Source of the DNA: Solirubrobacterales bacterium
GTDB taxonomy: Bacteria; Actinomycetota; Thermoleophilia; Solirubrobacterales; Solirubrobacteraceae
Reading direction: 5' to 3'
Length of the DNA stretch: 32,728 nt
NCBI GenBank assembly: GCA_019247075.1
Contig: JAFAPR010000096.1
Span: 1 to 32,728, forward strand
The translations under genes and the position numbers were made by a program. Within the stretch, counting starts at the first letter, position 1; every line of letters begins with the position of its first letter. Shown here piece after piece: positions 10,423-25,024 of this stretch. Under the pieces are notes generated by a model, which saw nothing but the letters and a program-made list of their open reading frames with translations, searched no databases and was not told the DNA's origin.

Positions 10423-10513
10423 ACAGTCCAGAGAACGCGGCCTGGCGAATCAGCTTTGCGCCCCGCTCCAACCTCGTGAACGCAATCGAGCCTGCGTTCT
10501 GCGCATTTTTGCT

Positions 10514-10519
10514 TATAGT
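10514..10519 (+). promoter_or_regulatory. -10 element (TATAGT) of the SIS-ROK operon
   Basis: GCTTATAGT lies so that transcription would begin near GTG 10527 (7 nt between). The same 9-mer GCTTATAGT occurs before the ABC-transporter lipoprotein gene, also 8 nt from its start codon. No TTGACA-like -35 is found here, so an activator or a weaker promoter is likely. Confidence 0.5.
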
Positions 10520-10526
10520 GAGCACG

Positions 10527-11417
10527 GTGGGCTTGAATCGCGCAGAAACCGCCGCCATCGACGGAGAGGTACACAGCCAGCCGTCGATCTGGCGGCGCGC
10601 CGCGGCGCTGGCGGCCGGGGCCGATCTCCCTTCATCGGGGCAGCGGGTCGCGGTCATGGGCTGCGGCACGTCGCTGTTCGTGGCGCAGGCGATCGCGAAC
10701 TGGCGAGAGGGAAGCGGCCACGGATTGACCGATGCATTCACGCCTTCGGAGATGCCGCTGGGGCGCCGCTACGACAGCGTGATCGCGATCTCTCGGTCCG
10801 GCACCACGACCGAGGTGCTGCAGGCGTTGCGGTCGCTCCCGGAGAGCGACACATTCGCGATCACCGCCGTGGCGGAGAGCCCGCTTGCAGAGAACGTTGA
10901 ACACCTTGTCGCGCTGCCGTTCGCGGATGAGACCGCGATCGTGCAGACGAGGTTCTCGACCAGCGTGGTCGCGCTGTGGCGAGCCTATCTCGGCCACGAC
11001 GTCGACCGCCTCGCGGCGCATGCCGAAGCCAAGCTGACGGCGGGCTTGCCGGACTCGCTCACGACCTCAGAGCAGTTCGTGTTCCTCGGCCACGGGCCGG
11101 CCGTGGGGCTGGCCAACGAGGCATCGCTGAAGTTCCGGGAGGCGGCCCTCGCGTGGAGCGAGGCGTATCCGGCGATGGAGCTCCGGCACGGCCCCATCAG
11201 CGTTCTCGGGCCGAGGAGCCTGGTGTGGTCCCTTGGTGATTTGCCACAGGGGCTTGCGGAAGACGTCCTGGCCACCGGGGCATGTCTTCAGGTCGACGGC
11301 GGGGATCCGCTGCCTGAGATGGTGCGAGTGCACCGTGCCGCGATCGCGTTGGCCCGAGCGAAAGGGCTCAACCCGGACTGCCCGCCACGCCTCGAACGGT
11401 CGGTCGTATTACCGTAG
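10527..11417 (+). CDS. SIS-domain sugar-phosphate isomerase/deaminase or deglycase
   Basis: GTG 10527 is preferred over the track start at 10476 because it sits at the expected start point of a leaderless mRNA and gives the usual SIS N-terminus (RAETAAIDGEVHSQPSIW). The 296-residue protein has two SIS folds: GCGTSLFVAQA and AISRSGTTTEVL in the first, GHGPAVGLANEASLKFREAALAWSEAYPAMELRHGP in the second. Lys202, Glu205 and His221 match the catalytic Lys485, Glu488 and His504 of GlmS at identical spacing. The GlmS C-terminal Lys603 is replaced (RLERSVVLP). There is no glutaminase domain. This fits NagB-II/AgaS deaminases or FrlB/FraB deglycases. ROK kinase follows 22 bp later. Confidence 0.85.
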   Translation: MGLNRAETAAIDGEVHSQPSIWRRAAALAAGADLPSSGQRVAVMGCGTSLFVAQAIANWREGSGHGLTDAFTPSEMPLGRRYDSVIAISRSGTTTEVLQALRSLPESDTFAITAVAESPLAENVEHLVALPFADETAIVQTRFSTSVVALWRAYLGHDVDRLAAHAEAKLTAGLPDSLTTSEQFVFLGHGPAVGLANEASLKFREAALAWSEAYPAMELRHGPISVLGPRSLVWSLGDLPQGLAEDVLATGACLQVDGGDPLPEMVRVHRAAIALARAKGLNPDCPPRLERSVVLP

Positions 11418-11439
11418 AACCGCGGCGGGGCTGGTCGAG

Positions 11440-12366
11440 TTGGATAACCCGCGGGAGCGCGACGTTGAGGTTCTGGCCCTCGACATCGGTGGTACCAAGC
11501 TCGCCGCTGGGATAGTCGACAGGTCGGGCCGCGTTCGTGACCGGCGGGTCATCCCCACCGCCCGCGAGGATGGCGCAGATCGGGTGCTTGAGCGAGCCCT
11601 TTCGCTTGTTGAGGAACTCGTGGCAAACGAACGCCGGGCCGACCGGCTGCCCCTCGGACTGGGCGTATCGACGAACGGCCTCACGCGAGAGGACGGGGTG
11701 GACTTGGCGCCCGCGGTGCCCGGTTGGTCGCAGTTGCGCATCCCCGCTGCGCTGCATACGCGCTTTCCGCAGTTGCGGGCGACCATCATCAACGACGTGA
11801 AGGCCGCGACCCGAGCGGAGCTGGCGTGGGGCGCTCTGCACGGGGTCTCGGAGGGTCTCTACGTCAACCTGGGAACGGGGATTGCCGCGGGCATAGTGTG
11901 GAGAAGACAGGTGATCGAGGGCGCCCACGGCGCCGCCGGTGAGGTCGGCTACATCGTGCCCTCGCTCGAGGCGCTGGCCGATCGGCGTCCCGGGGCCGCC
12001 GTGCTCGAGGAACGCCTGGGAGGGCGGGGGGTCGAGGCGTGGACCGCGACCGAGCGAGGGAAAGCCATAAGCGCGCGGGAGCTGTTTGACAGTTCGAATG
12101 CCAGCCCGATCGAGCGCGAGACGCGCGAGCAGTTGATCGCCGAGATCGCGTTATGGGTCGCAAACGTCGCGATTGTGGTCGATCCCTCCCGCGTTGTCTT
12201 GGGTGGCGGCATGATCCAATCTGGCTCCGAGCTGTACCGGCGGACCGCGGAGATCCTGGGGGAGATAGCTCCGTTTCCGATCGAGGTCGTGCCCGCCCAC
12301 TTTGGCGCCGAGTCCGCGCTGCTGGGGGCGGGGGCGGTGGCACTCTCCGCCGAGCAAACCGGTTGA
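11440..12366 (+). CDS. ROK-family sugar kinase without the zinc motif
   Basis: From TTG 11440 the protein has 308 residues. VLALDIGGTKLAAGIVD (residues 11-27) is the phosphate-binding loop of ROK kinases. ATIINDVKAATRAELAWG carries the catalytic aspartate (about 119), LYVNLGTGIAAGIV is the second phosphate loop and VVLGGGMIQSG the C-terminal ATP segment. ROK kinases normally have GExGH followed by C-x-C-G-x-x-G-C-x-E to bind zinc. Here GEVGYIV has Tyr at 171 and the cysteines are absent. It should phosphorylate an imported sugar or sugar conjugate. The first codons have no DNA-binding domain, so it is a kinase rather than a ROK repressor. Co-transcribed with the SIS gene. Confidence 0.85.
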   Translation: MDNPRERDVEVLALDIGGTKLAAGIVDRSGRVRDRRVIPTAREDGADRVLERALSLVEELVANERRADRLPLGLGVSTNGLTREDGVDLAPAVPGWSQLRIPAALHTRFPQLRATIINDVKAATRAELAWGALHGVSEGLYVNLGTGIAAGIVWRRQVIEGAHGAAGEVGYIVPSLEALADRRPGAAVLEERLGGRGVEAWTATERGKAISARELFDSSNASPIERETREQLIAEIALWVANVAIVVDPSRVVLGGGMIQSGSELYRRTAEILGEIAPFPIEVVPAHFGAESALLGAGAVALSAEQTG

Positions 12367-12391
12367 CAGCGTGCGCGACTCTGCCTAAAGT
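12363..12391 (+). promoter_or_regulatory. Sigma70-type promoter of the GH27 gene, overlapping the ROK stop codon
   Basis: TTGACA (12363-12368), a 17-nt spacer and TAAAGT (12386-12391) form a near-consensus promoter. Its -35 box overlaps the TGA stop of the kinase gene. The implied 5' leader is about 75 nt and ends with GGAGGAG, 5 nt before ATG 12476. The alpha-galactosidase gene can thus be expressed apart from the SIS-ROK pair. Confidence 0.65.
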
Positions 12392-12475
12392 GGCTCGATC
12401 GCGCACAATCAGCGCAGCTTCGCTAAACGAGATGCAACGGCCTGTACGGAGACCCTGCGCGGTGGAGGAGGCCCC

Positions 12476-13888
12476 ATGAGAAGACTGACCCGTCGCCTGA
12501 CGCCAGCGCTCGTCTCACTCGCAGTGGTTTGTGGCGCGTTTGCCGTGAGCGGCGCGCCGTCTGCGCGAGGAGAGTCGCATCCGCCTCGGGGTACGGACCT
12601 GAAGCCGGTGCTCGGCTGGAGTACTTGGAGCTTCTTCAGGAGATCGTCGGATGCCGCCATCGACGAGGCGGCCGCCCGGGCCATGAAACAGAGCGGCCTT
12701 GAAGCGCGCGGCTTTCGGTACATCAATCAGGATGACTTCTGGTATCAGTGCCCGGGGCCACAGGGCCCGAACGTCGATCGCTATGGCAGGTGGGTGACCC
12801 GCGGCGCCAAATTCCCGCCAGGTCCTCATCGGGAGAATGGCATCAAGGTCGTGGCCAGCTACGTGCACAAGCTGGGGCTGAAGTTCGGCATCTACGTAAC
12901 GCCCGGGATCTCGCATCAGGCCGTTGCGAAGAACACGCGCATCCTAGGCACGCCTTACAGAGCCGATGAGATCGCCACCCGGAAAAAGCAGCTCAACTAC
13001 AACTGCGGCGGCATGATGGGCCTCAACTACCACAAGCCCGGCGCTCAGGCCTTCATCAACTCGATCGTGGACGAATTCGCCTCCTGGGGCATCGACTACA
13101 TCAAGCTCGACGGCATCACCGACGCCAACAAACCGGACATCAGGGCCTGGTCTGACGCGATCCGGCAATCGCACCGTCCGATGCAGCTCGACGTCACCGA
13201 GGGTCATTACACCATTGCGCTCGGTCCCACCCTCGATAAGTACGCGACCCAATGGGAGTACACATCCGACATCGAGAACTACGGCGGTAGGGGATTGACC
13301 GACTACGCCAATGTCGCATTGCGGTTTCACACCCTCGCGTTGTGGGAGCCGCGCTACGGCGGGCGGCGGTTCAAGGGCTACAACGACTTCGACTCGGTCG
13401 AGCTCGGCAACTGCAACGGCCCCGTTGGCTCCTCCAATCCCTTCGGCTCGGTCAGATACTCAAAGGGGGATGGGCTAACCCTTCCCGAACGAAAGACCGT
13501 GCTCAGCCTGTGGTCACTGGCGGCCTCGCCCCTAATCCTGGGCACCAACCTGACCAAGCTATGCAAGACTGATTTGAGACTGCTCAGAAACCGGGCGGTG
13601 CTCTCTGTCGAACAGGACGGGATCGACTCGTCGATGATCCTCGACAAGCGCGCGGAGAAAGTGATCGCGAAGAGAGAGCGCCACGGCGATGTCGTGGTCG
13701 GGCTGTTCAATACGACCAGCCACCGGGAGGTGATCTCGACCACCGCACCAGCCATCGGACTGCCCAAACGGCGGAGATACAGGCTGACCGATCTGTGGAG
13801 GCACAGCTCGATCAAGAGCGGCAGGAGAATCACGGCGAGCGTTCCCGCGCACGGCGTGGTGCTGTACCGCGTCACCCCTCGCAAATAG
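12476..13888 (+). CDS. Secreted GH27 alpha-galactosidase / alpha-N-acetylgalactosaminidase-like enzyme
   Basis: The 470-residue protein starts with a signal peptide (MRRLTRRLTPALVSLAVVCGAFAVSGAPSARG) and is probably exported. The GH27 barrel is marked by LGWSTWSFF, YINQDDFWYQ, GLKFGIYVTPG and IDYIKLDG, where Asp212 is the expected nucleophile. WEYTSDIENYG follows with Asp265 as likely acid/base, then DFDSVELGN and LWSLAASPLILGTNL. A C-terminal beta-domain (VVVGLFNTTSHREV ... HGVVLYRV) follows as in other family members. It should remove terminal alpha-linked galactose or GalNAc outside the cell. Several motifs deviate (GIYVTPG for GIYSDAG, YIKLDG for YLKYDNC), so specificity may be unusual. 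It has its own promoter and strong ribosome site. Confidence 0.88.
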   Translation: MRRLTRRLTPALVSLAVVCGAFAVSGAPSARGESHPPRGTDLKPVLGWSTWSFFRRSSDAAIDEAAARAMKQSGLEARGFRYINQDDFWYQCPGPQGPNVDRYGRWVTRGAKFPPGPHRENGIKVVASYVHKLGLKFGIYVTPGISHQAVAKNTRILGTPYRADEIATRKKQLNYNCGGMMGLNYHKPGAQAFINSIVDEFASWGIDYIKLDGITDANKPDIRAWSDAIRQSHRPMQLDVTEGHYTIALGPTLDKYATQWEYTSDIENYGGRGLTDYANVALRFHTLALWEPRYGGRRFKGYNDFDSVELGNCNGPVGSSNPFGSVRYSKGDGLTLPERKTVLSLWSLAASPLILGTNLTKLCKTDLRLLRNRAVLSVEQDGIDSSMILDKRAEKVIAKRERHGDVVVGLFNTTSHREVISTTAPAIGLPKRRRYRLTDLWRHSSIKSGRRITASVPAHGVVLYRVTPRK

Positions 13889-13918
13889 GACCGCTACGCT
13901 CGGGACGGCGTGGCGCGA

Positions 13919-14731
13919 TCAGGCCAGCTTTACCTCGATATGTGCCGCGCCAAAGGGGGCAAGCTGTGCTTCAGACGCCCCAGAATCGGTGACGATCAGG
14001 TCGACCGCGTCAATGTCGCAGATCTTGACGAACTTGACCTGACCGAGCTTCGTGTGGTCAGCGACCACGACAACTCGGGCGGCCCGGCGCACAAGCGCGG
14101 CGTTCGTAAGCGCTTCAGAGTCGTTGTGAGTCGTGCAGCCGGAGTTGCTGTCCACGCCGTCGACGCCGATGAACGCCAGGTCGATGTTGTAGTCCTGAAT
14201 CGTCCGCTCCGCAGCTGGACCGGACAGCTCAAAGGAAGCCGACCGCGCCATGCCGCCGGTAACCACAAGGCGAATGTTCGGGCGCAGCGCGAGTTCGGCG
14301 CCGATGTTGAGGGCGTTGGTCACCACGGTGAGATCGCGGCGTGTTGCCAGTGCCCGCGAGACCTCCATCGTGGTCGTTCCGCCGGTAAACCCGACCACCG
14401 CGCCATCCTCCACCAGGGCGGCCGCGGCCTGCCCGATTCGCCGCTTCTCCGGTGCCTGGCTAGTTTCCCGGTAACGGATCGGGAGCTCATAGCCACGATC
14501 CACGCGAACGGCTCCCCCGTGCGAGCGCAGCACGAGCCCTTGACTTGCAAGTTGGGCGAGGTCGCGGCGAACGGTGGCGCTCGAGACGGATAGCGCGGAC
14601 GCGAGTTCGTCGACGGCCGTCGTCGACTCCGGGTCCGTGAGATTGAGGATTGCACGCAGCCGCTCGACGCGATGCCGCGGTCGCGCGTATCTTGTCGCCC
14701 CGTCCTGACTGCTTCCCTTCATCTCGGCCAT
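13919..14731 (-). CDS. DeoR/GlpR-family transcriptional regulator
   Basis: The ATG at 14731 gives 270 residues; ATG 14722 is a close alternative. RVERLRAILNLTDPESTTAVDELASALSVSSATVRRDLAQLASQGLVLRSHGGA is the DeoR winged helix with its signature. The C-terminal DeoRC domain (VGFTGGTTTMEVSRAL, DLAFIGVDGVDSNSGCTTHNDSEA, VVVVADHTKLGQVKFVKI) binds phosphosugar effectors in this family. It is convergent with GH27 (30 bp between stops) and divergent from the ABC-importer operon, sharing its promoter region. It is therefore the natural local repressor of the importer and perhaps of the whole island, relieved by a sugar phosphate formed by the ROK kinase. That role is inferred from position. Confidence 0.9.
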   Translation of the reverse strand: MAEMKGSSQDGATRYARPRHRVERLRAILNLTDPESTTAVDELASALSVSSATVRRDLAQLASQGLVLRSHGGAVRVDRGYELPIRYRETSQAPEKRRIGQAAAALVEDGAVVGFTGGTTTMEVSRALATRRDLTVVTNALNIGAELALRPNIRLVVTGGMARSASFELSGPAAERTIQDYNIDLAFIGVDGVDSNSGCTTHNDSEALTNAALVRRAARVVVVADHTKLGQVKFVKICDIDAVDLIVTDSGASEAQLAPFGAAHIEVKLA

Positions 14732-14783
14732 CCGGCTCGGCTTCTTCCTCGGCAGAGCCGGCAAGCGCATCCTGCGGGTCGCA

Positions 14784-14834
14784 TATGCGCGTTGACACTC
14801 TGCATGAATGCGCTTATAGTAGTCTGAAATGCGC
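14784..14834. repeat. Three phased (A)TGCGC direct repeats in the DeoR/importer intergenic region
   Basis: ATATGCGC, GAATGCGC and AAATGCGC occur with 23- and 21-bp spacing, two helical turns, flanking both promoter hexamers of the lipoprotein gene. DeoR-family regulators often bind repeated sites, so these are candidate operators. TGCGC is short and common in GC-rich DNA, so chance cannot be excluded. Confidence 0.4.
14792..14820 (+). promoter_or_regulatory. Consensus promoter of the ABC-importer operon (leaderless)
   Basis: TTGACA (14792-14797), a 17-nt spacer and TATAGT (14815-14820) make a near-perfect sigma70-type promoter. The ATG of the lipoprotein gene begins 9 nt after the -10 box, so the transcript should start at or next to it and lack a leader. 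Confidence 0.75.
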
Positions 14835-16226
14835 GCCCGTGGTGCAGATTTGCTAAGGCTCGCGCACTGGCCGGCCGGGCGGCCGTGGCGGCGGAGGATG
14901 GGCCTGGCTCTCGTGGTTCCCGGGCTCGTCCTTCTGGTTGCCGCCTGCGGATCGTCGGGCTCGGGCTCGAACTCGTCCTCCAATAACAGCGCGCCCGCGG
15001 TCAATCTCAAGCACCCGGGGGGCAGCATCACCGTCGCGGTCGCCTACCCAAGCCCGCCCCCCGCGCTCCTGCAACAGTTCACCAAGCAGACGGGGGTCAA
15101 GGTGCGCTGGGTGAACGTGGGCTGGGACGACCTGCAGAGCAAGATCGTGGCCGCCTCCACCGCTCACAGCTACTTTGCCGACGTCACCGATGTGGACTGG
15201 TCGAAGACAGGCGAGTACTACAAGCTGCACTGGTTCTATCCGCTGAACCGATACTTCGCGATCTCGACGCTCTCGGGCCAGATGCCTCAGCTGAGTTCGT
15301 TCGTCGACAATGGCCAACTCGTAGGCATCCCCATGGACGCCTCATTCATGGTGTCGACGATGAACACCAAGCAATTCACCCATGCCGGCGTCACCAAGGC
15401 CCCCACGACGATCGCGCAGTACACGGCCGATCTGCAGAAGCTGAAGAGCTCCGGGGTCAATCCCCATCCACTGAATATTCCGCTCCAGGCCCAGGAGGGT
15501 CTGTCCACCTATTGGTACGAGACGACCGCGGCGTTCGGCGGGCACGTCCTCACCGCGCAACACAAGGCTGCGTTCACCTCTCCCAGCTCGCCCGGGTACA
15601 AGGCACTCGCCTGGATCGTGCACGCGTACAAGTCCGGACTGGTGCCACCGGGGAACATCAACATGGCCGACGTCGCGTCGCTGACTAGCAACATGGCGCA
15701 CGGCATGACCGCCTCGTCCCTCTCGGAGTATTCGGGCGACCTGGCCACGATCTACGACATTCCGAGCAACTCGAGCGTGGTGGGCCAGGTGAAGTACGTA
15801 TCCACCCCGACCGCCAGCGGAGCGCCGGCTCCCAACCTCGGCAACCCTGACGGCGTGGGAATACCGCGGACGGCCCACAACGTGGCGGGCGCTGTCGCGT
15901 TCATCAAGTGGTTGGATAAGCCGAGCAATCAGGCTCTGTGGGCGGGCGCCAACGGAGGCAAGGATGCCATCACCGGCTTCCCGCTCCCGGCCCAGAAGAA
16001 CGCCACCGCCATCCTTGCGTCCTCGCTGCATGGCAAGTCGGGCATTGGCGATCTAAGTCAGCTGCTCCGCGACAGCCAGCCCGTGTTCCAGAACGGCGCG
16101 CCGCCTTGGTATTCGCAGTTCTCAAACGCGGTGTACACGAATGTTCACGCCGCTGCGGCCGGCCAAGAAAGCGTGAAGGCAGCGATCAGCGCGATCGCCC
16201 AGGTCGTCAACCAGAACGCCCCCTAG
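14829..16226 (+). CDS. ABC sugar importer, substrate-binding lipoprotein
   Basis: The 465-residue protein has a signal GLALVVPGLVLLVAAC with lipobox VAAC and Cys40 as lipidation site. A serine/asparagine-rich linker follows (GSSGSGSNSSSNNS). The mature part is a family-1 extracellular binding protein: SITVAVAYPSPPPALLQQFTKQTGVKVRWVNVGWDDLQSKIVAA at the N-lobe, then YFADVTDVDWSK, and GIPRTAHNVAGAVAFIKWLDKPSNQALW in the C-lobe. Such proteins capture mono- or oligosaccharides outside the membrane. Two permease genes follow at once. The start at ATG 14829 is set by the promoter spacing. Substrate cannot be read from sequence; neighbours suggest an alpha-galactoside, amino sugar or sugar-amine conjugate. 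Confidence 0.9.
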   Translation: MRARGADLLRLAHWPAGRPWRRRMGLALVVPGLVLLVAACGSSGSGSNSSSNNSAPAVNLKHPGGSITVAVAYPSPPPALLQQFTKQTGVKVRWVNVGWDDLQSKIVAASTAHSYFADVTDVDWSKTGEYYKLHWFYPLNRYFAISTLSGQMPQLSSFVDNGQLVGIPMDASFMVSTMNTKQFTHAGVTKAPTTIAQYTADLQKLKSSGVNPHPLNIPLQAQEGLSTYWYETTAAFGGHVLTAQHKAAFTSPSSPGYKALAWIVHAYKSGLVPPGNINMADVASLTSNMAHGMTASSLSEYSGDLATIYDIPSNSSVVGQVKYVSTPTASGAPAPNLGNPDGVGIPRTAHNVAGAVAFIKWLDKPSNQALWAGANGGKDAITGFPLPAQKNATAILASSLHGKSGIGDLSQLLRDSQPVFQNGAPPWYSQFSNAVYTNVHAAAAGQESVKAAISAIAQVVNQNAP

Positions 16227-16242
16227 CCGCACCCCCGGGCCC

Positions 16243-17193
16243 TTGTCCGGAACCGAGCTGCTCGAATCTCCCGAAGTCGAGACAGCAGCGCCTAGGCGGT
16301 GGCGGCGGCGAGAGCCGTCGGTGCGGTCGCAGCGCCAGCGGCTGGCTTACATCCTGCTCGCGCCATTGGCCCTGTTTATCGGTGCGTTGACGTTGTACCC
16401 GACGGCCGTGACAACCGTCGAGGCGTTCTTCCGCGAGTACTCGCTGGTAAACAACCACAACTTCGTCGGCTTGAAAAACTTCCATGACGCCTTCTCGACT
16501 CCGGCGATCCGTCAGAGCTTCGTCAATACGGGGATCTACGTGCTGTCCGGAACGGTGCTGTCGGTCGTGCTCGGGATCGCGTTCGCGCTGCTGCTGCGGC
16601 AGCGCTCGCGCTGGCGCGCGCCGCTGCTCGCCCTCGTCGTGCTGCCGTGGGCGCTGCCGCCGGTGGTCGAGGCACTGCTGTGGAGCCGGATCTACGACCC
16701 GACCTTCGGACCCCTGAACGGGGTTCTGAAGTCCATCGGACTGATCAGCCACAACCAGGTGTGGCTCGGTTCCAACCGCTGGGAGGCGCTGGTGCTGATC
16801 GAACTCGTGCAGGTCTGGCAGACCACCCCTCTGTGCGTGTTGCTCATCCTGGCGGCCCTGCAGCTAATCCCGTCGGAGCTCTATGAGGCCGGCGCGGTGG
16901 ACGGCGCGAGCGCCTGGCACGGGTTCCGCTACATCACCCTGCCGCTACTGCGGCCCGGAATCACGATCGCGATGGTCGCGGCCATCACCGCCAGTCTCAA
17001 CATCTTTGATCAGCCCTATATCCTCACCGGCGACGCCAGCGCATCGGCCTCGGTGGGCGTTCAGACCTACCTCGTAAGCTTCCAGAACCTGAACTTCGGC
17101 GAGGGTTATGCGCTGTCGTTGATCATGACCCTGGCGACCGCGGCCATCTCTCTGCTGGTGCTGCGTCTCGTCTACAGAAGGGTGGAGTTCTGA
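16243..17193 (+). CDS. ABC sugar importer permease (MalF/UgpA type)
   Basis: The 316-residue protein has six hydrophobic helices beginning LAYILLAPLALFIGALTLYPTAV. The EAA loop EAGAVDGASAWHGFRYITLPLLRPG near residue 215 contacts the ATPase. The track start is TTG 16243, without a clear ribosome site; GTG 16321 just before the first helix is an alternative. It lies 16 bp after the lipoprotein gene and 17 bp before the second permease gene, so all belong to one operon. It forms the membrane channel as a heterodimer with the next gene product. The ATPase is encoded in the opposite-strand operon nearby. Confidence 0.93.
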   Translation: MSGTELLESPEVETAAPRRWRRREPSVRSQRQRLAYILLAPLALFIGALTLYPTAVTTVEAFFREYSLVNNHNFVGLKNFHDAFSTPAIRQSFVNTGIYVLSGTVLSVVLGIAFALLLRQRSRWRAPLLALVVLPWALPPVVEALLWSRIYDPTFGPLNGVLKSIGLISHNQVWLGSNRWEALVLIELVQVWQTTPLCVLLILAALQLIPSELYEAGAVDGASAWHGFRYITLPLLRPGITIAMVAAITASLNIFDQPYILTGDASASASVGVQTYLVSFQNLNFGEGYALSLIMTLATAAISLLVLRLVYRRVEF

Positions 17194-17210: not shown

Positions 17211-18095
17211 GTGCCGCTGGTGAGCCGGCGTCCGTCGGGCCGCACGCGGCGAGTCGCGCGCCGATGGGGCCGCTGGATCGCGCTGGTGCTGGTCGTCATC
17301 TGGTCGCTCTTCCCGCTCTACTGGGGCCTCAGCACGAGTCTGATGTCGAGCGGCGCGGCCGACTCGCTGCCGGTCCACTACTACCCCCACCCGCTGTACC
17401 TCTCCAACTACGGGCAGCTGCTCAACCTTCAGCACGCCAATCTCGGCACGCTCCCATACCAGCTGCGTCAGTCGCTTTTGAACTCCACGATCGAGTCAGT
17501 TGGCACGACCGTCTTGACCGTGTTCGTGGCGATTTTTGCCGCCTACGCATTCGCGCGGCTGGAGTTCCGCTTCAAGCGGATCATCCTCGTGACCACGATC
17601 GCGACGCTGTTGCTGCCCGCGTACGCGACCCTGCTGCCGCTGTACAAGCTCATGACGAGCTGGAACCTGGTCAACACGTACCTCGGGATAATCCTGACCA
17701 ACACATCAGGGTTCCTTCCCCTGGCGATCTGGATCCTCTACAACTATTTCCAGGGCCTCCCGAAAGAGCTCGAGGAGGCGGCGTTCATCGATGGGGCTCG
17801 CCCGCTGGAGGCGCTGGCGCGCGTGATCCTGCCGCTCTCGCTCCCAGGCATCGCTGCCGCGGCCGCTGTCACGTTCCTCTTCAGCTGGTCTCAGTTCCTG
17901 TTCCCGCTGATTCTGACCACTGACTTGAGATCCGAGCCCGCGACGGTCGTGATCGCAGCTCTTTACGGCCCAAGGTTGGTGGCTTTCAGCTTGATGGCCG
18001 CGGCGGGCATGCTTGCGATCGCGGTCCCTGCTGCCCTGGCGTTGCTGCTCAACCGGTACATCGTGAGCGGCCTCACGGCGGGGGCCACCAAATGA
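17211..18095 (+). CDS. ABC sugar importer permease (MalG/UgpE type)
   Basis: The 294-residue protein has an N-terminal helix WIALVLVVIWSLFPLYWGLSTSL and further helices such as IILVTTIATLLLPAYATLLPLYKLM. Its EAA loop is EEAAFIDGARPLEALARVILPLSLPG. This is the shorter partner permease of CUT1-type importers. It starts with GTG 17211. Its TGA overlaps the ATG of the SDR gene (ATGA), so the SDR is translationally coupled to the importer, a strong hint that the dehydrogenase acts on the imported substrate. Confidence 0.93.
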   Translation: MPLVSRRPSGRTRRVARRWGRWIALVLVVIWSLFPLYWGLSTSLMSSGAADSLPVHYYPHPLYLSNYGQLLNLQHANLGTLPYQLRQSLLNSTIESVGTTVLTVFVAIFAAYAFARLEFRFKRIILVTTIATLLLPAYATLLPLYKLMTSWNLVNTYLGIILTNTSGFLPLAIWILYNYFQGLPKELEEAAFIDGARPLEALARVILPLSLPGIAAAAAVTFLFSWSQFLFPLILTTDLRSEPATVVIAALYGPRLVAFSLMAAAGMLAIAVPAALALLLNRYIVSGLTAGATK

Positions 18096-18820
18096 CCGAG
18101 CCAAACCAACCGCTCGCGGGCCGCGTGGTGATCGTTACGGGCGCGAGCTCAGGTGTCGGAGCCGCCGCCACGAGGGCGCTGATCGCAGCAGGAGCGCGCG
18201 TGGTCGCCGTCGCGCGCTCCGGGGAAAGGCTCGGGTCGCTCCAGGTCCCTGACGATGCGAGCCTGCTGAGGGAATCGGCGGACGTGCGCGCGCGCGAGGA
18301 CATGGAGCGCGTCGCCCAGCTCGCCGTTGACCGCTTCGGCGCCTGCGACGCGATCGTCTGCAACGCCGGCGTCGGCGAGTACGCCGACTTCCTGGACATG
18401 ACCCCCGAAACCGTCACCGAGATCGTCGAGACCAACCTGCTTGGAACCGTGTGGTCGATCCGGGCCGTACTGCCGCACATGCTCGCCGCCGGCGGCGGCG
18501 ACATTGTCGTCGTGAGCTCCGTGGTGGCGGTGATGGACTCCGCCGGCGAGGCGGTCTACGCCGCCACCAAAGCAGGCCAGAAGACGCTTGCGGCCTGCTT
18601 GGATCTCGAGCTGCGAAGTCGGGGCGTGCGCCTCTCGACCGTCCTGCCCGGGGGGGTGAAGACCGAATTTGCGATCGGCCGCGGGCGGACGCCCGACATG
18701 CCGGACTTCGCCACCATGCTCGAGCCGGAGGACGTCGCCGCCGTGATCCTCACCATCCTCTCCCAGCCCCGGCACGTCCGGACCACCGTCTGGGGGCTGT
18801 CTCACTTGGAAGAGGACTAG
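18092..18820 (+). CDS. Short-chain dehydrogenase/reductase
   Basis: The 242-residue protein is a classical SDR. It has the nucleotide-binding TGASSGVG (residues 16-23), the NAG motif (91-93), the catalytic serine near 142 in VVVSSVVAV and YAATK with Tyr156 and Lys160. RVVAVARSGERL after the second strand has basic residues that favour NADP(H), an inference. GGVKTEF is the usual loop after the active site. It oxidises or reduces an alcohol/carbonyl in the cytoplasm; the substrate is unknown. The ATGA overlap with the second permease gene makes it the last gene of the importer operon, so a sugar or sugar-derived substrate is likely. Confidence 0.9.
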   Translation: MTEPNQPLAGRVVIVTGASSGVGAAATRALIAAGARVVAVARSGERLGSLQVPDDASLLRESADVRAREDMERVAQLAVDRFGACDAIVCNAGVGEYADFLDMTPETVTEIVETNLLGTVWSIRAVLPHMLAAGGGDIVVVSSVVAVMDSAGEAVYAATKAGQKTLAACLDLELRSRGVRLSTVLPGGVKTEFAIGRGRTPDMPDFATMLEPEDVAAVILTILSQPRHVRTTVWGLSHLEED

Positions 18821-18825
18821 GGACG

Positions 18826-18839
18826 CGCGGCGAGCCGCG
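18826..18839. terminator. Small GC hairpin between two convergent operons
   Basis: CGCGG-CGAG-CCGCG forms a 5-bp stem with a tetraloop in the 40-bp gap between the SDR stop and the ATPase stop. Location suits a bidirectional terminator, but there is no T-run and short GC hairpins are common here. Confidence 0.25.
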
Positions 18840-18860
18840 ACCACCCGCTCGCCCCGGCGC

Positions 18861-20060
18861 CTAGTTCCAGAGCGCCGCGCCCGACTGCGGGTCGAAGAAG
18901 TGCAGTCGCTCGGTGTCCACGACGAACGTGGCCCGCTCGCTGGCGCGTACCTGCGACCGAGTCTGCACGCGCGCCACACCGGTGTCGCGAGCTGCGAGCT
19001 CCGACCCGCCCGAGGCCAAGTCGACGAGCTCCTCCTCCTCGCTGGCGGCCGCGGCGTCCTCGGAGTGGACCCGCGCAGCATCGATGTGGAAGTGGACCAT
19101 CAGCTCCGAGCCGAGCGCCTCGACCAGCTTCACGTCGCCCACGAGGGTGGCTCCATTGAGCTCTGCGCGCTCGAGCGAAGCGTCGCTGAGGTGCTCGGGC
19201 CGGATTCCCACGAGCAGCTTGTGGTCGTTGAACGGCCGCAACGCGGTTCGCTCGGAACGGACGCGGTCGGGCAGCGAAAGCGTCTGCGAGCCAAGGCGGA
19301 CCGCGCTGCCGTCGGGGGAGAGCGTGCCTTCGTAGAGGTTCATCGCGGGAGAGCCGATGAAGGCCGCCACGAATACATTGCCCGGGCGGTCGTAGATCGC
19401 CTGAGGCGCCTGGCACTGCTGCAGGACGCCCGAGCGCAGCACCGCGACGCGATCGCCCATGGTCATCGCCTCGGTTTGGTCGTGGGTCACGTACAGGGTG
19501 GCGACACCGAGCCGGTGCTGGATCTCCGAGATCTCGGCCCGCATCTGCACGCGCAGCTTGGCGTCGAGGTTGGACAGCGGTTCGTCCATCAGGAACACCG
19601 AGGGCTCGCGCACGATCGCCCGACCCATGGCGACGCGCTGGCGCTGTCCGCCCGAGAGCTGCGCCGGTTTGCGGTCCAAGTGCTCGCTCAGGCCTAGGAT
19701 CTTCGCCGCCTCTTTGACGCTTGCGTCGATCCGTTGCTTGGGCACCTTCTTCAGCCGCAGCGCAAAGCCGATGTTGCGGGCCACCGTCATGTGGGGGTAG
19801 AGCGCGTAGTTCTGGAAGACCATCGCGACGTCGCGCTCCTTCGGGGAAAGCTCGTTCACGACGCGGTCGCCGATCCGGACGGTCCCGCCCGTGATCTCCT
19901 CGAGCCCGGCCACCATACGCAGCGCCGTGGTCTTGCCGCAGCCCGAAGGCCCCACCAGCACCATAAACTCGCCGTCGGCCACGCGCAGGTCCAGATTGGA
20001 GACGGCCGTGGTGCCGTTGGGGAAGATTTTGGTCAGCTTGTCGAGGGTGACAGTGGCCAT
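18861..20060 (-). CDS. ABC sugar importer ATPase (UgpC/MsiK type)
   Basis: ATG 20060 gives 399 residues; the longer track ORF reads into the ALDH gene end. Walker A is GPSGCGKT (37-44), the Q-loop is VFQNYALYPHM, the signature LSGGQRQRVAMGRAIVREP starts at 135, and Walker B is VFLMDEP. The C-terminal TOBE-type regulatory domain (LVGIRPEHL) is present and carries an acidic insertion, SEDAAAASEEEELVD. Proteins of this type energise CUT1 importers, sometimes several at once. Here it is separate from its permeases and lies 23 bp downstream of the aldehyde dehydrogenase gene on the same strand, so the two form an operon convergent with the importer genes. Confidence 0.93.
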   Translation of the reverse strand: MATVTLDKLTKIFPNGTTAVSNLDLRVADGEFMVLVGPSGCGKTTALRMVAGLEEITGGTVRIGDRVVNELSPKERDVAMVFQNYALYPHMTVARNIGFALRLKKVPKQRIDASVKEAAKILGLSEHLDRKPAQLSGGQRQRVAMGRAIVREPSVFLMDEPLSNLDAKLRVQMRAEISEIQHRLGVATLYVTHDQTEAMTMGDRVAVLRSGVLQQCQAPQAIYDRPGNVFVAAFIGSPAMNLYEGTLSPDGSAVRLGSQTLSLPDRVRSERTALRPFNDHKLLVGIRPEHLSDASLERAELNGATLVGDVKLVEALGSELMVHFHIDAARVHSEDAAAASEEEELVDLASGGSELAARDTGVARVQTRSQVRASERATFVVDTERLHFFDPQSGAALWN

Positions 20061-20083
20061 CGCCGCGTTCTCGCCGCGCGGGG

Positions 20084-21607
20084 TCAGTCGAGCAGGCGTA
20101 TGTAGGTCATCTTGACCTGGGTGTAGTTCTCGAGTGCGTGCACCGATAGGTCGCGACCGCCGCCGGACTGCTTGTAACCGCCGAAGGGGAGCGAGAGGTC
20201 GCCGTAGTCGTAGCAATTGACGTATACGGTTCCCGAGCTCAGCCCTCGCGCGAAACGGTGCGCCTTGTTGACGTCGCTCGTCCACACCGCGGCCGACAGG
20301 CCGTAGGCGGTGTCGTTGGCGGCCCTCAGGGCCTCCTCCTCTGAGGAGAAGGACTGGACGGCCAGCACCGGGCCGAATATCTCTTCACGTGCGATCCGCA
20401 TCCCGGCGTCCACGCCGGTGAAGACGGTCGGCTCCACATAGAAGCCGCCCGTCTCTTCCCGTGCGCGGTGGCCTCCGTTGTAGAGCTCTGCTCCCTCCCG
20501 GCTGCCAAGGCGGATGTAATCCAGAACGCGCTCCATCTGCCGCTCGTCGACCATCGCTCCCAGTCGCGTGTCAGGGTGCAGCGGGTCCCCGGGCTGCCAT
20601 TGCTCGGCCTGCTGCGCGAGGCGCTCGAGGACCTGATCGCGGATTGACTCGTGCACCAGCAGGCGCGAGCTCGCATTGCACATCTGGCCGGCATTGACAA
20701 AGATCCCCGTGGCCGTCTCTTCGACCGCGAGTTCGAGATCGGGCACGTCGGAGAGGATGACCGAGGGCGATTTTCCGCCGCACTCGAGCTGCACGCCCTT
20801 CATGTTCGAGGCTCCGGCGTAAGTGAGGAACAGCTTCCCCACCTCGGTCGAGCCCGTAAAGGCGATCTTGTCGACCTCCATGTGGAGGCCGAGCGCCTTG
20901 CCCGCCACCTCACCGAAGCCAGGCACTACGTTCAGCACCCCTTGCGGAAGCTCCACTTGGAGCGCCAATTCCGCCAGGCGCAAGATGCACAACGGTGACT
21001 GTTCGGCCGGCTTGACCACCACTGAGTTGCCGGTCGCCAGAGCCGGCGCGAGCTTCCACATGGGCACGTCCAAGGGGTAATTCCAGGGCACCACGATGCC
21101 CACGACGCCGAGCGGCTCGCGCGTCATCAGGGTCAGCGCTGAAGGGCCGGTCGGGCCGACCTCGCCGTAGACCTTGTCGATCGCCTCGGCGTAGTAGCGA
21201 AGCGTGCCGGCGGCGTCGAGCACCTCCTCTCGCGCGTCGGTGATGGGCTTGCCCATGTCCATCGTGATCAGGGTCCCCAGCACGTCGACGTCCGCCTCGA
21301 TCAACTCGGCGAGCGCAAACAGGATCGTCTTGCGGCCTTGCGGCTCGGCATTCCGCCACGCGCCGCCCTCGAACGCCCGCCGTGCGGCGCGCACCGCCCT
21401 GTCGACGTCCTCGGCTCCGCACTCGGCCACATGGCAGAGAATCTCCCCCGAAACAGGACTCACGCATTCGAATCGCGCGCCCGAGACCGCGTCGACAAAC
21501 CGCCCGTCGATGAAGGCATCGCGGGGCCAGTGGGCAATCTGGGCGACAGGCGAGCGCGCGGGCGTGCTCAGGTCCTCGGCTTGCGTCAGAGTTCTCTCCT
21601 CGCTCAA
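20084..21607 (-). CDS. NAD(P)-dependent aldehyde dehydrogenase
   Basis: The protein is a complete ALDH of about 500 residues. PWNYPLDVPMWKLAPALATGNSVVVKPAEQSPL is the cofactor region, VQLECGGKSPSVIL carries the general-base glutamate, and GIFVNAGQMCNASSRLLVHESI has the catalytic cysteine. FGGYKQSGGGRDLSVHALENYTQVK is the C-terminal signature of amino-aldehyde and betaine-aldehyde type enzymes. The start is uncertain: TTG 21607 is chosen, but GAGGAGAG lies after it and the track ORF runs to 21805. It is divergent from the copper amine oxidase gene (108 bp between starts), so the pair can oxidise a primary amine to the acid. The ATPase gene follows 23 bp later. Confidence 0.88.
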   Translation of the reverse strand: MSEERTLTQAEDLSTPARSPVAQIAHWPRDAFIDGRFVDAVSGARFECVSPVSGEILCHVAECGAEDVDRAVRAARRAFEGGAWRNAEPQGRKTILFALAELIEADVDVLGTLITMDMGKPITDAREEVLDAAGTLRYYAEAIDKVYGEVGPTGPSALTLMTREPLGVVGIVVPWNYPLDVPMWKLAPALATGNSVVVKPAEQSPLCILRLAELALQVELPQGVLNVVPGFGEVAGKALGLHMEVDKIAFTGSTEVGKLFLTYAGASNMKGVQLECGGKSPSVILSDVPDLELAVEETATGIFVNAGQMCNASSRLLVHESIRDQVLERLAQQAEQWQPGDPLHPDTRLGAMVDERQMERVLDYIRLGSREGAELYNGGHRAREETGGFYVEPTVFTGVDAGMRIAREEIFGPVLAVQSFSSEEEALRAANDTAYGLSAAVWTSDVNKAHRFARGLSSGTVYVNCYDYGDLSLPFGGYKQSGGGRDLSVHALENYTQVKMTYIRLLD

Positions 21608-21685
21608 TTGTGGGCTCGCACGAGCGTAGGGCAGCGCGGCCTTGCGGACTCTACCACGCGCAATCGGTGTTCTGTTACGCTTGAT

Positions 21686-21695
21686 TTCGCGCGAA
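21686..21695. promoter_or_regulatory. Perfect 10-bp palindrome in the ALDH / amine-oxidase divergent region
   Basis: TTCGCGCGAA is a perfect palindrome followed by AGCGCT, 20 bp before the amine-oxidase ATG. Its central place between two divergent genes suggests an operator. The regulator is unknown; the DeoR protein of the island is a candidate. Confidence 0.35.
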
Positions 21696-21715
21696 GCGCT
21701 GCCATTTGGGCAAAT

Positions 21716-23668
21716 ATGACCGCGATTACGATCTCTCATCCGCTCGATCCGCTCAGGACCGAGGAGATCGTCGCGGTCGCCGCAGCAGTCCGGGCCGCGG
21801 CTCAATACGGCGACCTGAGTGCGCTGGTCCGCTTCATCACGATCGATTTGCGGGAGCCGGACAAGGCCGCGGTCTTGGACTGGAGTAGGAACGGCGGCGA
21901 GCTACCCCCGCGCGACGCGGAAGTGGTCCTGCTGGACGGGGGCGATGGAGCAACGCACGAAGTGACCGTGGCGCTCGACGGCGAGGCGCGGGTGGTGGCC
22001 TGGCGGCGGCGCGACGACGTCCAACCGATGGCTGTCGTCGGCGAGTTGATGGTGGCCGAGGAGCTCGTCAAGCACGACGAGCGGTTCCGTGCGGCTCTCG
22101 CCAGACGAGGCATCACCGACTTCGAAGCCGTCCAGGTAGACGCCTGGCCGGCCGGGAACTTCAATTACGAGGATGAGGTCGGCAGGAGGTTGGCCCGCTG
22201 CGTGGTCTTCATCCGGCCCGCCGGCGAGGAGAACGAATGGGCCCACCCGGTCGACGGCCTGATCGCGCTCGTCGACCTCAACCGTCAGCAGATCCTACGA
22301 ATCGAGGATCACGGCGAGGTGCCGATTCCGACCGAGCCGGGCGATTTCGATGCGACCGCCGCGGGGCCTCCCCGCGACGACATCGCACCGCTCGAGATCG
22401 TCCAGCCGCAGGGGGCGGGATTCACCGTCGACGGCAACGTCATCCGCTGGCAGCGGTGGGAGCTGCACGTCGGGTTCACCTCGCGCGAGGGGCTCGTGTT
22501 GAACCAGGTTGGCTACCACGACCGGGGGCTTTTGCGCTCGATCATCTACCGCGCTTCGCTCTCGGAGATGATCGTCCCCTACGGCGACCCGAGCCCCACG
22601 CACTACTTCAAGAACGCGATGGACGCGGGCGAGAACGGCGTCGGCGTGTGTGCGTCATCGCTCGAGCTTGGCTGCGACTGCCTGGGCGAAATCTTCTACC
22701 TCGAGGCCAACGTCGCGGACGCCGACGGGGCTCCTGTGACGATTCCTAATGCGATCTGCATCCACGAGGAGGATGTGGGCGTGTTGTGGCGCCACATCGA
22801 TTGGCGGCGGGGCGCAGGGGAGGTGCGGCGCTCTCGCCGGCTCGTGATCTCGTCCTTTTCGGCGATCGGCAATTACGACTACGGCTTCTTCTGGTACCTC
22901 TACCAGGACGGCACGATCGAGTACGAGATCAAGCTGACGGGAGTCCTCTCGACCGGCGGAGTGGCTCCAGACGAGAAGCCGCGCTACGGAACGCTGGTGG
23001 CACCGGGCCTCAACGCGATGATCCACCAGCACTTCTTCAACGTGCGACTCGACCTCGACGTCGACGGCCTCGAGAACGCGGTCGAGGAGGTGTGGACCGA
23101 ATCCGAGCCCTTGGGGCCGAGCAACCCTCACGGCAATGCCTACCGCGCGCACCGGCGTCGCTTCGCTTCCGAACGCGGCGCGATCCGGCGCACCGATCCC
23201 GCGTCGGCGCGCTGGTGGGAGATAGTCAATCCCCGCATCCGCCACCGTTTGGGAGCACCGGTGGGGTACCGGCTGATCCCCGGCGAGAACGCGGTCCCCT
23301 TCGCCGCGGCCGAGGCCGCCGTGAGCAAGCGCGCCGGGTTCGTTCGCGAGCACCTCTGGGTCACTCCATACGACCGCGGCGAGCGGTTCGCGGCCGGCGA
23401 GTATCCCAACCAGCATCCCGGTGGCGCGGGCCTTCCCGAATGGACCTCTGCCGACCGGCCGATCGATTGCCGGGACATCGTCGTCTGGTACACCTTCGGC
23501 CACCATCACGTGCCCAGGCCCGAGGATTGGCCCGTGATGCCGGTGGCGACGATCGGTTTCAAGCTAAAGCCGGTCGGCTTCTTCGATCGCAATCCGTCGC
23601 TCGACGTGCCCCCGTCCGTCCCGCACCGCAGCCACCGCGCGCGCGATGGCGGGGGAGCGCCCTCCTAG
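21716..23668 (+). CDS. Copper-containing primary amine oxidase (topaquinone enzyme)
   Basis: ATG 21716 gives 650 residues, the normal length; the earlier part of the track ORF is a shadow of the ALDH gene. The start MTAITISHPLDPLRTEEI is typical. AIGNYDYGFFWYLYQDGTIEYE holds the topaquinone precursor Tyr387 in NYD. YGDPSPTHYFKNAMDAGENGVG carries the catalytic-base aspartate. Copper ligands are the HQH of MIHQHFFNVRLD and a histidine of HHHVPRPEDWPVMP. The enzyme converts R-CH2-NH2, O2 and water to aldehyde, ammonia and H2O2. Relatives act on tyramine, phenylethylamine or histamine; the substrate here is not readable. No signal peptide. Its stop directly abuts the GH4 start. Confidence 0.93.
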   Translation: MTAITISHPLDPLRTEEIVAVAAAVRAAAQYGDLSALVRFITIDLREPDKAAVLDWSRNGGELPPRDAEVVLLDGGDGATHEVTVALDGEARVVAWRRRDDVQPMAVVGELMVAEELVKHDERFRAALARRGITDFEAVQVDAWPAGNFNYEDEVGRRLARCVVFIRPAGEENEWAHPVDGLIALVDLNRQQILRIEDHGEVPIPTEPGDFDATAAGPPRDDIAPLEIVQPQGAGFTVDGNVIRWQRWELHVGFTSREGLVLNQVGYHDRGLLRSIIYRASLSEMIVPYGDPSPTHYFKNAMDAGENGVGVCASSLELGCDCLGEIFYLEANVADADGAPVTIPNAICIHEEDVGVLWRHIDWRRGAGEVRRSRRLVISSFSAIGNYDYGFFWYLYQDGTIEYEIKLTGVLSTGGVAPDEKPRYGTLVAPGLNAMIHQHFFNVRLDLDVDGLENAVEEVWTESEPLGPSNPHGNAYRAHRRRFASERGAIRRTDPASARWWEIVNPRIRHRLGAPVGYRLIPGENAVPFAAAEAAVSKRAGFVREHLWVTPYDRGERFAAGEYPNQHPGGAGLPEWTSADRPIDCRDIVVWYTFGHHHVPRPEDWPVMPVATIGFKLKPVGFFDRNPSLDVPPSVPHRSHRARDGGGAPS

Positions 23669-25024
23669 ATGCCCATCAAGCTGGCGATCATCGGCGGCGG
23701 CTCGAGCAGCTTCGTTCCGCCGCTGATCCGTCGCCTCATCCAGTCTCCCGTGCTCTCGAGCGCCGCGGTGACCCTGATGGACGTCGACGCCGGGCGCCTC
23801 CAGGTGATGGACGCGCTCGCCAACAGGCTGATCGACAGCGAAGCGAGTCCCCTAACCGTGCGGAGCACGCTGGACCAGCGCGAGGCCCTGGTGGACTCGG
23901 ACTTCGTCATCGCCGCAATCTCCGTGGGTGGCATGGACGCGTGGGCGAACGACCTGGAGATCCCTGGGCGCTACGGCCTCGTCATGCACGTAGGCGACTC
24001 GATCGGCCCGGGTGGGGTGATGCGCGCGCTGCGCAACGCGCCTGTCCTGGCGAGTGTGGCCCGAGACGTCTCCGAGGTGGCGCCCAAGGCGTACGTCTTC
24101 AACTACACCAACCCGGCGCCGACGGAGACGATGGCGATGCGCACCGTGCCCGGCGTGAGGGCGTTCGGGCTGTGCTCGTGCGCGCAGTACCCGGCTAACC
24201 CCGCCTGGCTTGCGGAACAGGCCCGGATCGAGCCGGACCAGATCGCGATGCCTCCGGTGGTCGCCGGGCTCAACCATTGCGCCAGCGTTATCGAGCTGCG
24301 GCTCACCGACGGTCGCGATGGGCTCGCGCTTGCCCGCGAGCATGCGCAACAGCCGATCACGAGGTGGGCGCTGGAGTCCTATGGCGTCCTGCCGTACTGC
24401 TGGCGCCACTGGGTCGAGCACTTCCCGCAGATGCAGTGGCTTGAGGAGCCGTATGCGGGAACGGCCCAGGGAGTGAGGATGCGCTACGGCATCACCACCC
24501 ACAGCATGGCGCACGAGCGCGAGCGCATACAGAGGCTTGAGGAGCTCGCGCGGGCGTGGACCGCAGCCGACGCCGGTCCGGTCACGCTCGCCGACCTGCC
24601 CCATGGGCACGAGGATGAAGGGATAGAGGTGATCGACATCATCGAGGCGATCGTCGATAACCGCAACGAGATCCACGTGGTCAACACGGTCAACCACGGC
24701 GCGATCCCCAACCTCCCCGACGACGCGATCGTCGAGGTCAACGCCGCCGTCAACGCGTATGGCATCCGCGCGCTTTACGCAGGACCGCTGCCCGAGGCAC
24801 TCGCCGCCCACCTGCGCCACTACTGCGCGCTCGAGCGGCAGATGGTCAGGGCCGCGCTACAGGGGGACCGCCAGGCGGCTCTCCAGGCCTTTCTGCTCGA
24901 TCCTACGACCCAGGCGCGGCTGGATCTTGAGCAGACCACGGCGCTGCTGGATGAGATGCTCGACGCCAACGCCGAGCATCTGCCGGCCTTCGAGGCTTCG
25001 AGTATCGGCGCCGGCGGCCGCTGA
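23669..25024 (+). CDS. Glycoside hydrolase family 4 enzyme (NAD+- and metal-dependent)
   Basis: The 451-residue protein begins KLAIIGGGSSSFVPPLIRRL, the NAD+-binding loop of GH4. VGDSIGPGGVMRALRNAPVL and VFNYTNPAPTETMAM are conserved substrate and cofactor segments. The metal site is Cys169 in GLCSCAQ and His203 in AGLNHCASV. GH4 enzymes cleave alpha- or beta-glycosides by transient oxidation at C3, acting inside the cell. Subgroups are told apart by residues after the metal cysteine (CHSV in alpha-galactosidases, CDMP and CN-x-P in phosphoglycosidases). CSCA fits none I know. It starts in the base after the amine-oxidase stop, so the two are co-translated. Confidence 0.9.
   Translation: MPIKLAIIGGGSSSFVPPLIRRLIQSPVLSSAAVTLMDVDAGRLQVMDALANRLIDSEASPLTVRSTLDQREALVDSDFVIAAISVGGMDAWANDLEIPGRYGLVMHVGDSIGPGGVMRALRNAPVLASVARDVSEVAPKAYVFNYTNPAPTETMAMRTVPGVRAFGLCSCAQYPANPAWLAEQARIEPDQIAMPPVVAGLNHCASVIELRLTDGRDGLALAREHAQQPITRWALESYGVLPYCWRHWVEHFPQMQWLEEPYAGTAQGVRMRYGITTHSMAHERERIQRLEELARAWTAADAGPVTLADLPHGHEDEGIEVIDIIEAIVDNRNEIHVVNTVNHGAIPNLPDDAIVEVNAAVNAYGIRALYAGPLPEALAAHLRHYCALERQMVRAALQGDRQAALQAFLLDPTTQARLDLEQTTALLDEMLDANAEHLPAFEASSIGAGGR

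What the first reader, a model, noticed from the sequence alone, without database searches (positions are those of the whole stretch)
10476..25024. Candidate new catabolic island: SIS + ROK + GH27 + ABC importer + SDR + ALDH + copper amine oxidase + GH4
Seen: about 14.5 kb of tightly packed intact genes (ATGA overlap permease/SDR, zero gap amine oxidase/GH4, 23-bp gap ALDH/ATPase). Known: in the Salmonella fra locus a SIS deglycase and a ROK-type kinase degrade a fructose-amino acid Amadori product, while AgaS/NagB-II SIS enzymes act on amino-sugar phosphates. Copper amine oxidase plus ALDH turns a primary amine into an acid. Inference: the island imports a galactosylated sugar-amine conjugate or amino-sugar glycoside, trims it with GH27 outside and GH4 inside, phosphorylates and splits the sugar, and burns the released amine. 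No NagA-type deacetylase is present, which argues against plain GlcNAc/GalNAc use.
Basis: partly seen in the sequence, partly recalled or inferred. Interest (0 to 1): 0.72.

Follow-up and report, generated by a model that had tools for sequence, protein, structure and literature searches.

The report
Amino-sugar gene cluster with amine-oxidase add-on
A soil-type actinobacterium carries a cluster for importing and breaking down what is most likely a galactosamine-containing sugar, with an amine-oxidising gene pair sitting inside it that no related cluster examined has, so the proposed single sugar-amine pathway remains unproven.

Summary
Comparison splits the island in two. (1) A sugar module: SIS, ROK kinase, secreted GH27, DeoR, ABC importer, GH4. 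The SIS-ROK-ABC-DeoR-MalK set, once with GH27, recurs in three same-genus genomes, where it also encodes a LacC/1-PFK-like kinase and a DUF2090 putative aldolase. Across 48 distinct Actinomycetota loci the SIS neighbours are DeoR regulators, class II aldolases and PfkB kinases: the logic of the aga galactosamine pathway. (2) A copper amine oxidase/ALDH pair, absent from all 48 SIS loci; 36 other amine-oxidase loci show no SIS, SBP, GH27 or GH4 beside them. Yet in this one draft genome amine and sugar genes interleave (amine oxidase-GH4 no gap; ALDH-MalK 23 bp), so a lineage-specific link is not excluded. 'No NagA' fails genome-wide: NagA, a NagB-II-like SIS and a PfkB lie on another contig. 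Verdict: aga-type sugar module plus a local amine-oxidation add-on.

The parts
10476..11417 (+). SIS-domain amino-sugar-phosphate isomerase/deaminase (GlmD/NagB-II/AgaS group; true start probably near 10527)
   Evidence: Pfam SIS 47.8 bits; NCBIfam GlmD 76 bits and AgaS 25.6, both below cut-off; 48 distinct Actinomycetota orthologous loci at 43-60%
11461..12366 (+). ROK-family sugar kinase (start approximate, near VEVLALDIGGTK)
   Evidence: Pfam ROK 116.7 bits; 44-52% to the ROK beside SIS in L051 and L064
12476..13888 (+). Secreted GH27-family glycosidase (signal-peptide-like N terminus)
   Evidence: Melibiase_2/Melibiase_C; nearest solved structures 3cc1 (putative alpha-N-acetylgalactosaminidase) and the GH27 beta-L-arabinopyranosidase Abp; 44% to the GH27 in the L051 module; promoter-like site 12363-12391
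13919..14731 (-).
   Evidence: DeoRC 168 bits; AgaR equivalog 204.8 bits, cut-off 260
14898..16226 (+). ABC importer solute-binding lipoprotein (LVAAC lipobox-like)
   Evidence: SBP_bac_8/SBP_bac_1; 55-60% to G005, G007, G026 and L064; TTGACA-17-TATAGT at 14792-14820
16243..17193 (+). ABC importer permease 1
   Evidence: BPD_transp_1; 50% to G248 next to GH4
17211..18095 (+). ABC importer permease 2
   Evidence: BPD_transp_1; 52% to G248 next to GH4
18092..18820 (+). Short-chain dehydrogenase overlapping permease 2 (ATGA)
   Evidence: adh_short 154 bits; no hit in the related SIS modules
18861..20060 (-). MalK/UgpC-type ABC ATPase
   Evidence: ABC_tran + OB_MalK; 61-63% to the module ATPases, but 65-66% to another transporter's ATPase
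20084..21607 (-). Aldehyde dehydrogenase (PuuC-like), start approximate
   Evidence: Aldedh 564.6 bits; NCBIfam PuuC 579.9, cut-off 850; 23 bp upstream of MalK
21716..23668 (+). Copper/topaquinone primary-amine oxidase, no signal peptide apparent
   Evidence: Cu_amine_oxid 525 bits; NCBIfam PRK11504 888 bits over cut-off 651; nearest PDB Arthrobacter phenylethylamine oxidase
23669..25024 (+). GH4-family NAD/metal-dependent glycosidase with an unusual C-S-C-A motif
   Evidence: Glyco_hydro_4 and 4C; motif comparison; 64% ortholog in G009 without amine oxidase beside it

Best explanation
The island is an aga-type amino-sugar (most likely galactosamine or alpha-galactosaminide) import and breakdown module into which a divergent ALDH/amine-oxidase pair has been placed between MalK and GH4. 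Inferred steps: secreted GH27 trims an alpha-galacto-configured glycan outside; the SBP-permease-permease importer, powered by MalK, brings in a short glycoside; GH4 splits it inside; the ROK kinase phosphorylates the amino sugar at C6; the SIS enzyme deaminates and isomerises it to a ketose-6-phosphate (tagatose-6-phosphate); a PfkB kinase and an aldolase finish the job. In relatives those last two are in the operon; here they must come from elsewhere, for example the PfkB on contig C173. The AgaR-like DeoR protein represses the module. Amine oxidase plus ALDH separately turn a primary amine into an acid, releasing NH3 and H2O2, and may simply be co-expressed. Shown: gene content, conserved module membership and non-conservation of the amine pair in the sample. 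Inferred: substrates, reaction order and regulation.
For: SIS orthologs sit with DeoR/AgaR-like regulators (30 loci), class II aldolases (23), PfkB kinases (11) and ROK kinases (11) nearby, and never with an amine oxidase or the ALDH. Same-genus L050/L051/L164 hold SIS-ROK-PfkB-DUF2090-SBP-P1-P2-DeoR-(GH27)-MalK. DeoR is nearest the GlpR (212) and AgaR (204.8) models. The published aga pathway uses AgaR (DeoR), AgaS (SIS), a Tag6P kinase and a class II aldolase (PMC4694137). G248 ties GH4 to the same permeases. The genome holds a separate NagA/NagB-II-like/PfkB set.
Against: No window protein passes an aga or galactosamine equivalog cut-off: SIS 25.6 bits for AgaS (cut-off 529) and 76 for GlmD (580); AgaR 204.8 (260). 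PfkB and the aldolase are missing from the window. GH27 is nearest a beta-L-arabinopyranosidase and a putative alpha-GalNAcase, so its sugar is uncertain. The zero-gap CAO-GH4 and 23-bp ALDH-MalK spacings argue that the amine genes are co-transcribed with sugar genes here. MalK is not diagnostic of the module.
Confidence: 0.6

Rival explanations
1. One integrated pathway for a glycosylated primary amine: the importer brings in a sugar-amine conjugate, GH4 splits it inside, ROK and SIS process the sugar, and amine oxidase plus ALDH oxidise the released amine.
For: In this genome GH4 follows the amine oxidase with no gap and MalK follows ALDH by 23 bp, so sugar and amine genes are interleaved in two likely transcription units.
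Against: 0 of 48 SIS loci and 0 of 36 amine-oxidase loci show the combination. Relatives with the importer (G005, G007) or with the closest GH4 (G009) have no amine-oxidase match at E <= 1e-50. The SIS neighbourhood elsewhere is a tagatose-type route.
Confidence: 0.13
2. Two unrelated neighbours: a sugar module and an amine-scavenging pair whose adjacency is accidental and not co-regulated.
For: Removing the divergent ALDH/CAO pair (20061-23668) leaves a plain divergent MalK|GH4 border, so a single insertion explains the layout (inference). Amine oxidases elsewhere stand alone or beside an ALDH (four adjacent pairs in 22 loci). No shared operator was found between the four promoter regions.
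Against: The tight spacing on both sides of the pair makes shared transcription with GH4 and MalK likely; the operator search was simple and would miss a degenerate site.
Confidence: 0.22
3. The SIS is a fra/frl-type deglycase acting on an Amadori compound, with the ROK kinase as its partner.
For: SIS plus kinase layout; the SIS superfamily includes such deglycases (established knowledge).
Against: Family models and solved structures hit are amino-sugar-phosphate deaminases and synthases, and no deglycase-named model or chain is in the lists. Ortholog neighbourhoods carry PfkB and bisphosphate aldolases, which an Amadori route yielding glucose-6-phosphate would not need.
Confidence: 0.05

Closest known systems
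aga (N-acetyl)galactosamine pathway of E. coli and Streptococcus (AgaR, AgaS, AgaZ/LacC, AgaY, AgaA)
   Same: DeoR-type regulator and an SIS enzyme and, in relatives, PfkB kinase and bisphosphate aldolase around it (PMC4694137)
   Different: ABC import and ROK kinase instead of PTS; GH27 and GH4 glycosidases; DUF2090 or class II aldolase in relatives; in the window the kinase and aldolase are not in the cluster and no member passes the aga equivalog cut-offs
Arthrobacter globiformis phenylethylamine oxidase (AGAO)
   Same: Best solved relative of the amine oxidase (E 3e-164), with TPQ Tyr, the base Asp and the gate Tyr conserved
   Different: Substrate-channel positions differ: AGAO L137 is Trp and W359 is Arg, as in many of the related actinobacterial oxidases, so the amine cannot be assumed to be phenylethylamine
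GH4 alpha-galactosidase (MelA type)
   Same: Fold family, NAD-binding motif and metal His; NCBIfam PRK15076 290.8 bits
   Different: Below the 486-bit cut-off; CSCA (CDCA in G009) replaces the CHS motif of the MelA-like members examined
Salmonella fra / frl deglycase systems
   Same: SIS enzyme plus sugar kinase
   Different: No deglycase-named model or structure among the hits; kinase-aldolase neighbourhood instead
Streptomyces NagS (GlcNAc-6-P dehydratase, an SIS enzyme; PMC12680351)
   Same: SIS superfamily, Actinomycetota
   Different: True NagS is reported only in Streptomycetaceae, related to MurQ, and next to dmdR1; the SIS here scores with GlmD/GlmS/NagB-II models and has a different neighbourhood

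Membership tests
aga galactosamine pathway | SIS deaminase/isomerase of AgaS family over model cut-off | tested here: not met
   AgaS family 25.6 bits against 529.2; GlmD 76 against 580
aga galactosamine pathway | AgaR-type DeoR regulator | tested here: inconclusive
   AgaR 204.8 bits against cut-off 260, second after haloarchaeal GlpR (212.2)
aga galactosamine pathway | Tagatose-6-P kinase and tagatose-1,6-bisphosphate aldolase in the same cluster | tested here: not met
   Absent from the window; kinase and putative aldolase present in same-genus modules L050, L051 and (split over two contigs) L049/L164; a PfkB is on contig C173 and a DUF2090 fragment on C8
aga galactosamine pathway | Deacetylase AgaA/NagA available for the N-acetyl form | tested here: met
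   Not in the window, but NagA 312.9 bits (cut-off 225.65) on contig C173
aga galactosamine pathway | Growth on GalN or GalNAc | not testable with these tools
   Needs a culture or purified enzymes
Copper primary-amine oxidase (PRK11504) | Model score over cut-off and intact TPQ/Cu site | tested here: met
   888.5 bits, cut-off 651; GNYDYG and HQH motifs
Conserved SIS-ROK-ABC-amine-oxidase island | Amine oxidase/ALDH next to SIS-ROK-ABC in other genomes | tested here: not met
   0 of 48 SIS loci; 0 of 36 amine-oxidase loci
GH4 alpha-galactosidase (MelA type, PRK15076) | Score over cut-off and CHS motif | tested here: not met
   290.8 bits against 486; CSCA motif
fra/frl deglycase | Best SIS relatives are fructosamine-6-phosphate deglycases | tested here: inconclusive
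   Searches list GlmD, GlmS, NagB-II and AgaS and no deglycase-named hit, but the presence of a deglycase model in the library was not separately verified

The most novel reading that the evidence does not exclude
A lineage-specific glycosyl-amine catabolic island in which GH4 (with its unusual CSCA motif) releases a primary amine inside the cell that the co-transcribed copper amine oxidase and ALDH oxidise, while ROK and SIS process the galactosamine-type sugar.
Probability: 0.12. Interest if true: 0.65.

Novelty: new variant of a known kind. Interest (0 to 1): 0.32.

Why it matters
It gives a concrete candidate galactosamine route with ABC import, ROK kinase and SIS in uncultured soil Solirubrobacterales-type bacteria, with DUF2090 and class II aldolases as partners that can be tested. 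It also shows that the eye-catching amine-oxidase part is not a conserved partner of this route in the genomes sampled.

Tried and rejected
Full-text searches for a described system with this gene combination found none. A shared operator between the SIS, GH27, SBP and CAO promoter regions was sought by 14-mer comparison and inverted repeats; nothing stood out (no shuffled control was run). MalK identity was considered as proof that ALDH-MalK belongs to the module, and dropped because ATPases of other transporters are equally close (57-66%). NagS was considered for the SIS and rejected on family and neighbourhood. Amine-oxidase channel residues were compared with AGAO but do not fix the substrate; the yeast HPAO specificity paper is not held. 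A pattern search for the hairpin downstream of GH4 was badly set (gap too short; even the window did not match) and says nothing. No structure prediction was run, because no substrate decision would have followed from it.
Full report
What is there. The window is the complete contig C257 of a 3.88 Mb, 367-contig draft genome (87% complete). The claimed genes are intact and the three stated spacings are exact. One gene was missed: a DeoR-family regulator at 13919-14731 on the minus strand. By layout the cluster is about six transcription units, not one operon: SIS-ROK, GH27, DeoR, SBP-perm-perm-SDR, ALDH-MalK and CAO-GH4. Two sigma-70-like sites fall in front of GH27 and the SBP (two found where 1.4 are expected, so weak).

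The sugar module is conserved. Orthologs of the SIS were collected from 150 relatives and from a scan of GTDB contigs: 50 loci, 48 distinct after removing two duplicated contigs, 36 of the 50 with at least 5 kb on both sides. Clustering of their neighbours gives DeoR-type regulators in 30 loci, class II aldolases in 23, PfkB kinases in 11, ROK kinases in 11, GH4 in 10 and NagA in 5; these counts come from 59 fetched stretches, a few of them GH4 or amine-oxidase loci without the SIS. The closest layouts are in the window's own genus: L050 (G005) and L051 (G026), and G007 split over two contigs (L049, L164), with SIS-ROK-PfkB-DUF2090-SBP-perm-perm-DeoR-(GH27 in L051)-MalK; SBPs are 55-60% and permeases about 50-56% identical to the window's. 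The PfkB scores over the 1-PFK subfamily cut-off with LacC (tagatose-6-P kinase) among the next models; the DUF2090 protein weakly matches tagatose-1,6-diphosphate aldolase. In a tree the window SIS pairs with an Acidimicrobiaceae MAG (L064; support 87/93, not decisive) which has SIS-ROK-SBP-perm-perm, also without PfkB between ROK and SBP. This is the logic of the aga pathway as described for E. coli and streptococci (PMC4694137).

GH27 and GH4. GH27 is secreted-looking, 44% identical to the GH27 of L051, and nearest by sequence to a putative alpha-N-acetylgalactosaminidase (3cc1) and the beta-L-arabinopyranosidase Abp among solved structures; the exact sugar is open. GH4 belongs to a rare branch: one 64% ortholog in the genus (G009) and one 36% relative in another family (G248). 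In G248 the GH4 lies directly behind permeases 50 and 52% identical to the window's, so the GH4-importer link is independent of the amine oxidase. Its CSCA motif (CDCA in G009) differs from the CHS, CHG and CN motifs of the other GH4 proteins examined.

The amine pair is not conserved with the module. A tblastn search of all 48 distinct SIS loci with the window's amine oxidase and ALDH gave no hit at E <= 1e-10; some of these contigs are short. Conversely, 22 amine-oxidase loci in the order (two of them other copies in this genome) and 14 in the wider phylum (most with only 1.5 kb flanks) have no SIS, SBP, GH27 or GH4 neighbour; four of the 22 have an ALDH directly beside them, in tandem rather than divergent. 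G005 and G007, which carry the importer, and G009, which carries the closest GH4, have no amine-oxidase match at E <= 1e-50; these are drafts of 88-91% completeness. What remains in favour of a link is local: amine oxidase-GH4 with no gap and ALDH-MalK with 23 bp imply shared transcripts in this genome. Taking out the divergent ALDH/CAO pair (20061-23668) leaves a simple divergent MalK|GH4 border, so one insertion would explain the arrangement (inference; no empty site was seen). MalK cannot decide the matter, being as similar to ATPases of other transporters.

The 'no NagA' argument. It holds for the window only. Contig C173 of the same genome encodes NagA (312.9 bits, cut-off 225.65), a NagB-II-like SIS (198.6, cut-off 430) and a PfkB/1-PFK kinase. 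So plain N-acetyl amino-sugar use is not excluded, and a candidate kinase for the missing step exists elsewhere. A DUF2090 fragment sits at the end of contig C8.

The amine. The oxidase is closest to Arthrobacter phenylethylamine oxidase, but two channel positions differ (L137 to Trp, W359 to Arg), as in many of the related oxidases examined. From general knowledge, copper amine oxidases act on R-CH2-NH2, so the 2-amino group of galactosamine (on a secondary carbon) is not an expected substrate; the pair would have to act on a different amine.

Verdict. Observation confirmed, with one missed gene. Interpretation partly supported: a galactosamine-type import and breakdown module is the best reading (0.6), with the amine-oxidase/ALDH pair as a lineage-specific add-on whose functional coupling is untested. 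No window protein passes an aga equivalog cut-off, so the module is described as working like the aga pathway, not filed as a proven member.

Noticed in passing
window 23669-25024; L055 5223-6551: GH4 with a CxCA motif (CSCA; CDCA in the 64% ortholog) and NHC in place of the usual CHS/CHG/CN motifs; a rare GH4 branch whose specificity is unknown.
   Followed up: partly
L050 6018-6908, L051 12586-13491, L164 1-1002, L053 4310-5209: Stand-alone DUF2090 proteins sit in or beside SIS-PfkB clusters and weakly match tagatose-1,6-diphosphate aldolase models: a candidate function for DUF2090 outside inositol metabolism.
   Followed up: partly
L161 932-4263 (contig C173 of the same genome): A separate PfkB, NagA and NagB-II-like SIS cluster, i.e. 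a second amino-sugar route in this genome.
   Followed up: yes
L062 4714-6669 and L063 3331-5511: Two further copper amine oxidases in the same genome, in different neighbourhoods from the window's and from each other's.
   Followed up: partly
window 25061-25092 and 25151-25182: A 32-nt, 84% complementary inverted repeat just downstream of GH4, without an obvious T run. The search for copies was badly set and uninformative.
   Followed up: partly
window 6884-7561: A 1-Cys peroxiredoxin about 14 kb left of the amine oxidase; could deal with H2O2 but lies outside the cluster.
   Followed up: no
L165 4185-4487: In G248 a second short GH4-like N-terminal ORF lies directly downstream of the GH4 gene, perhaps a partial duplication.
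   Followed up: no
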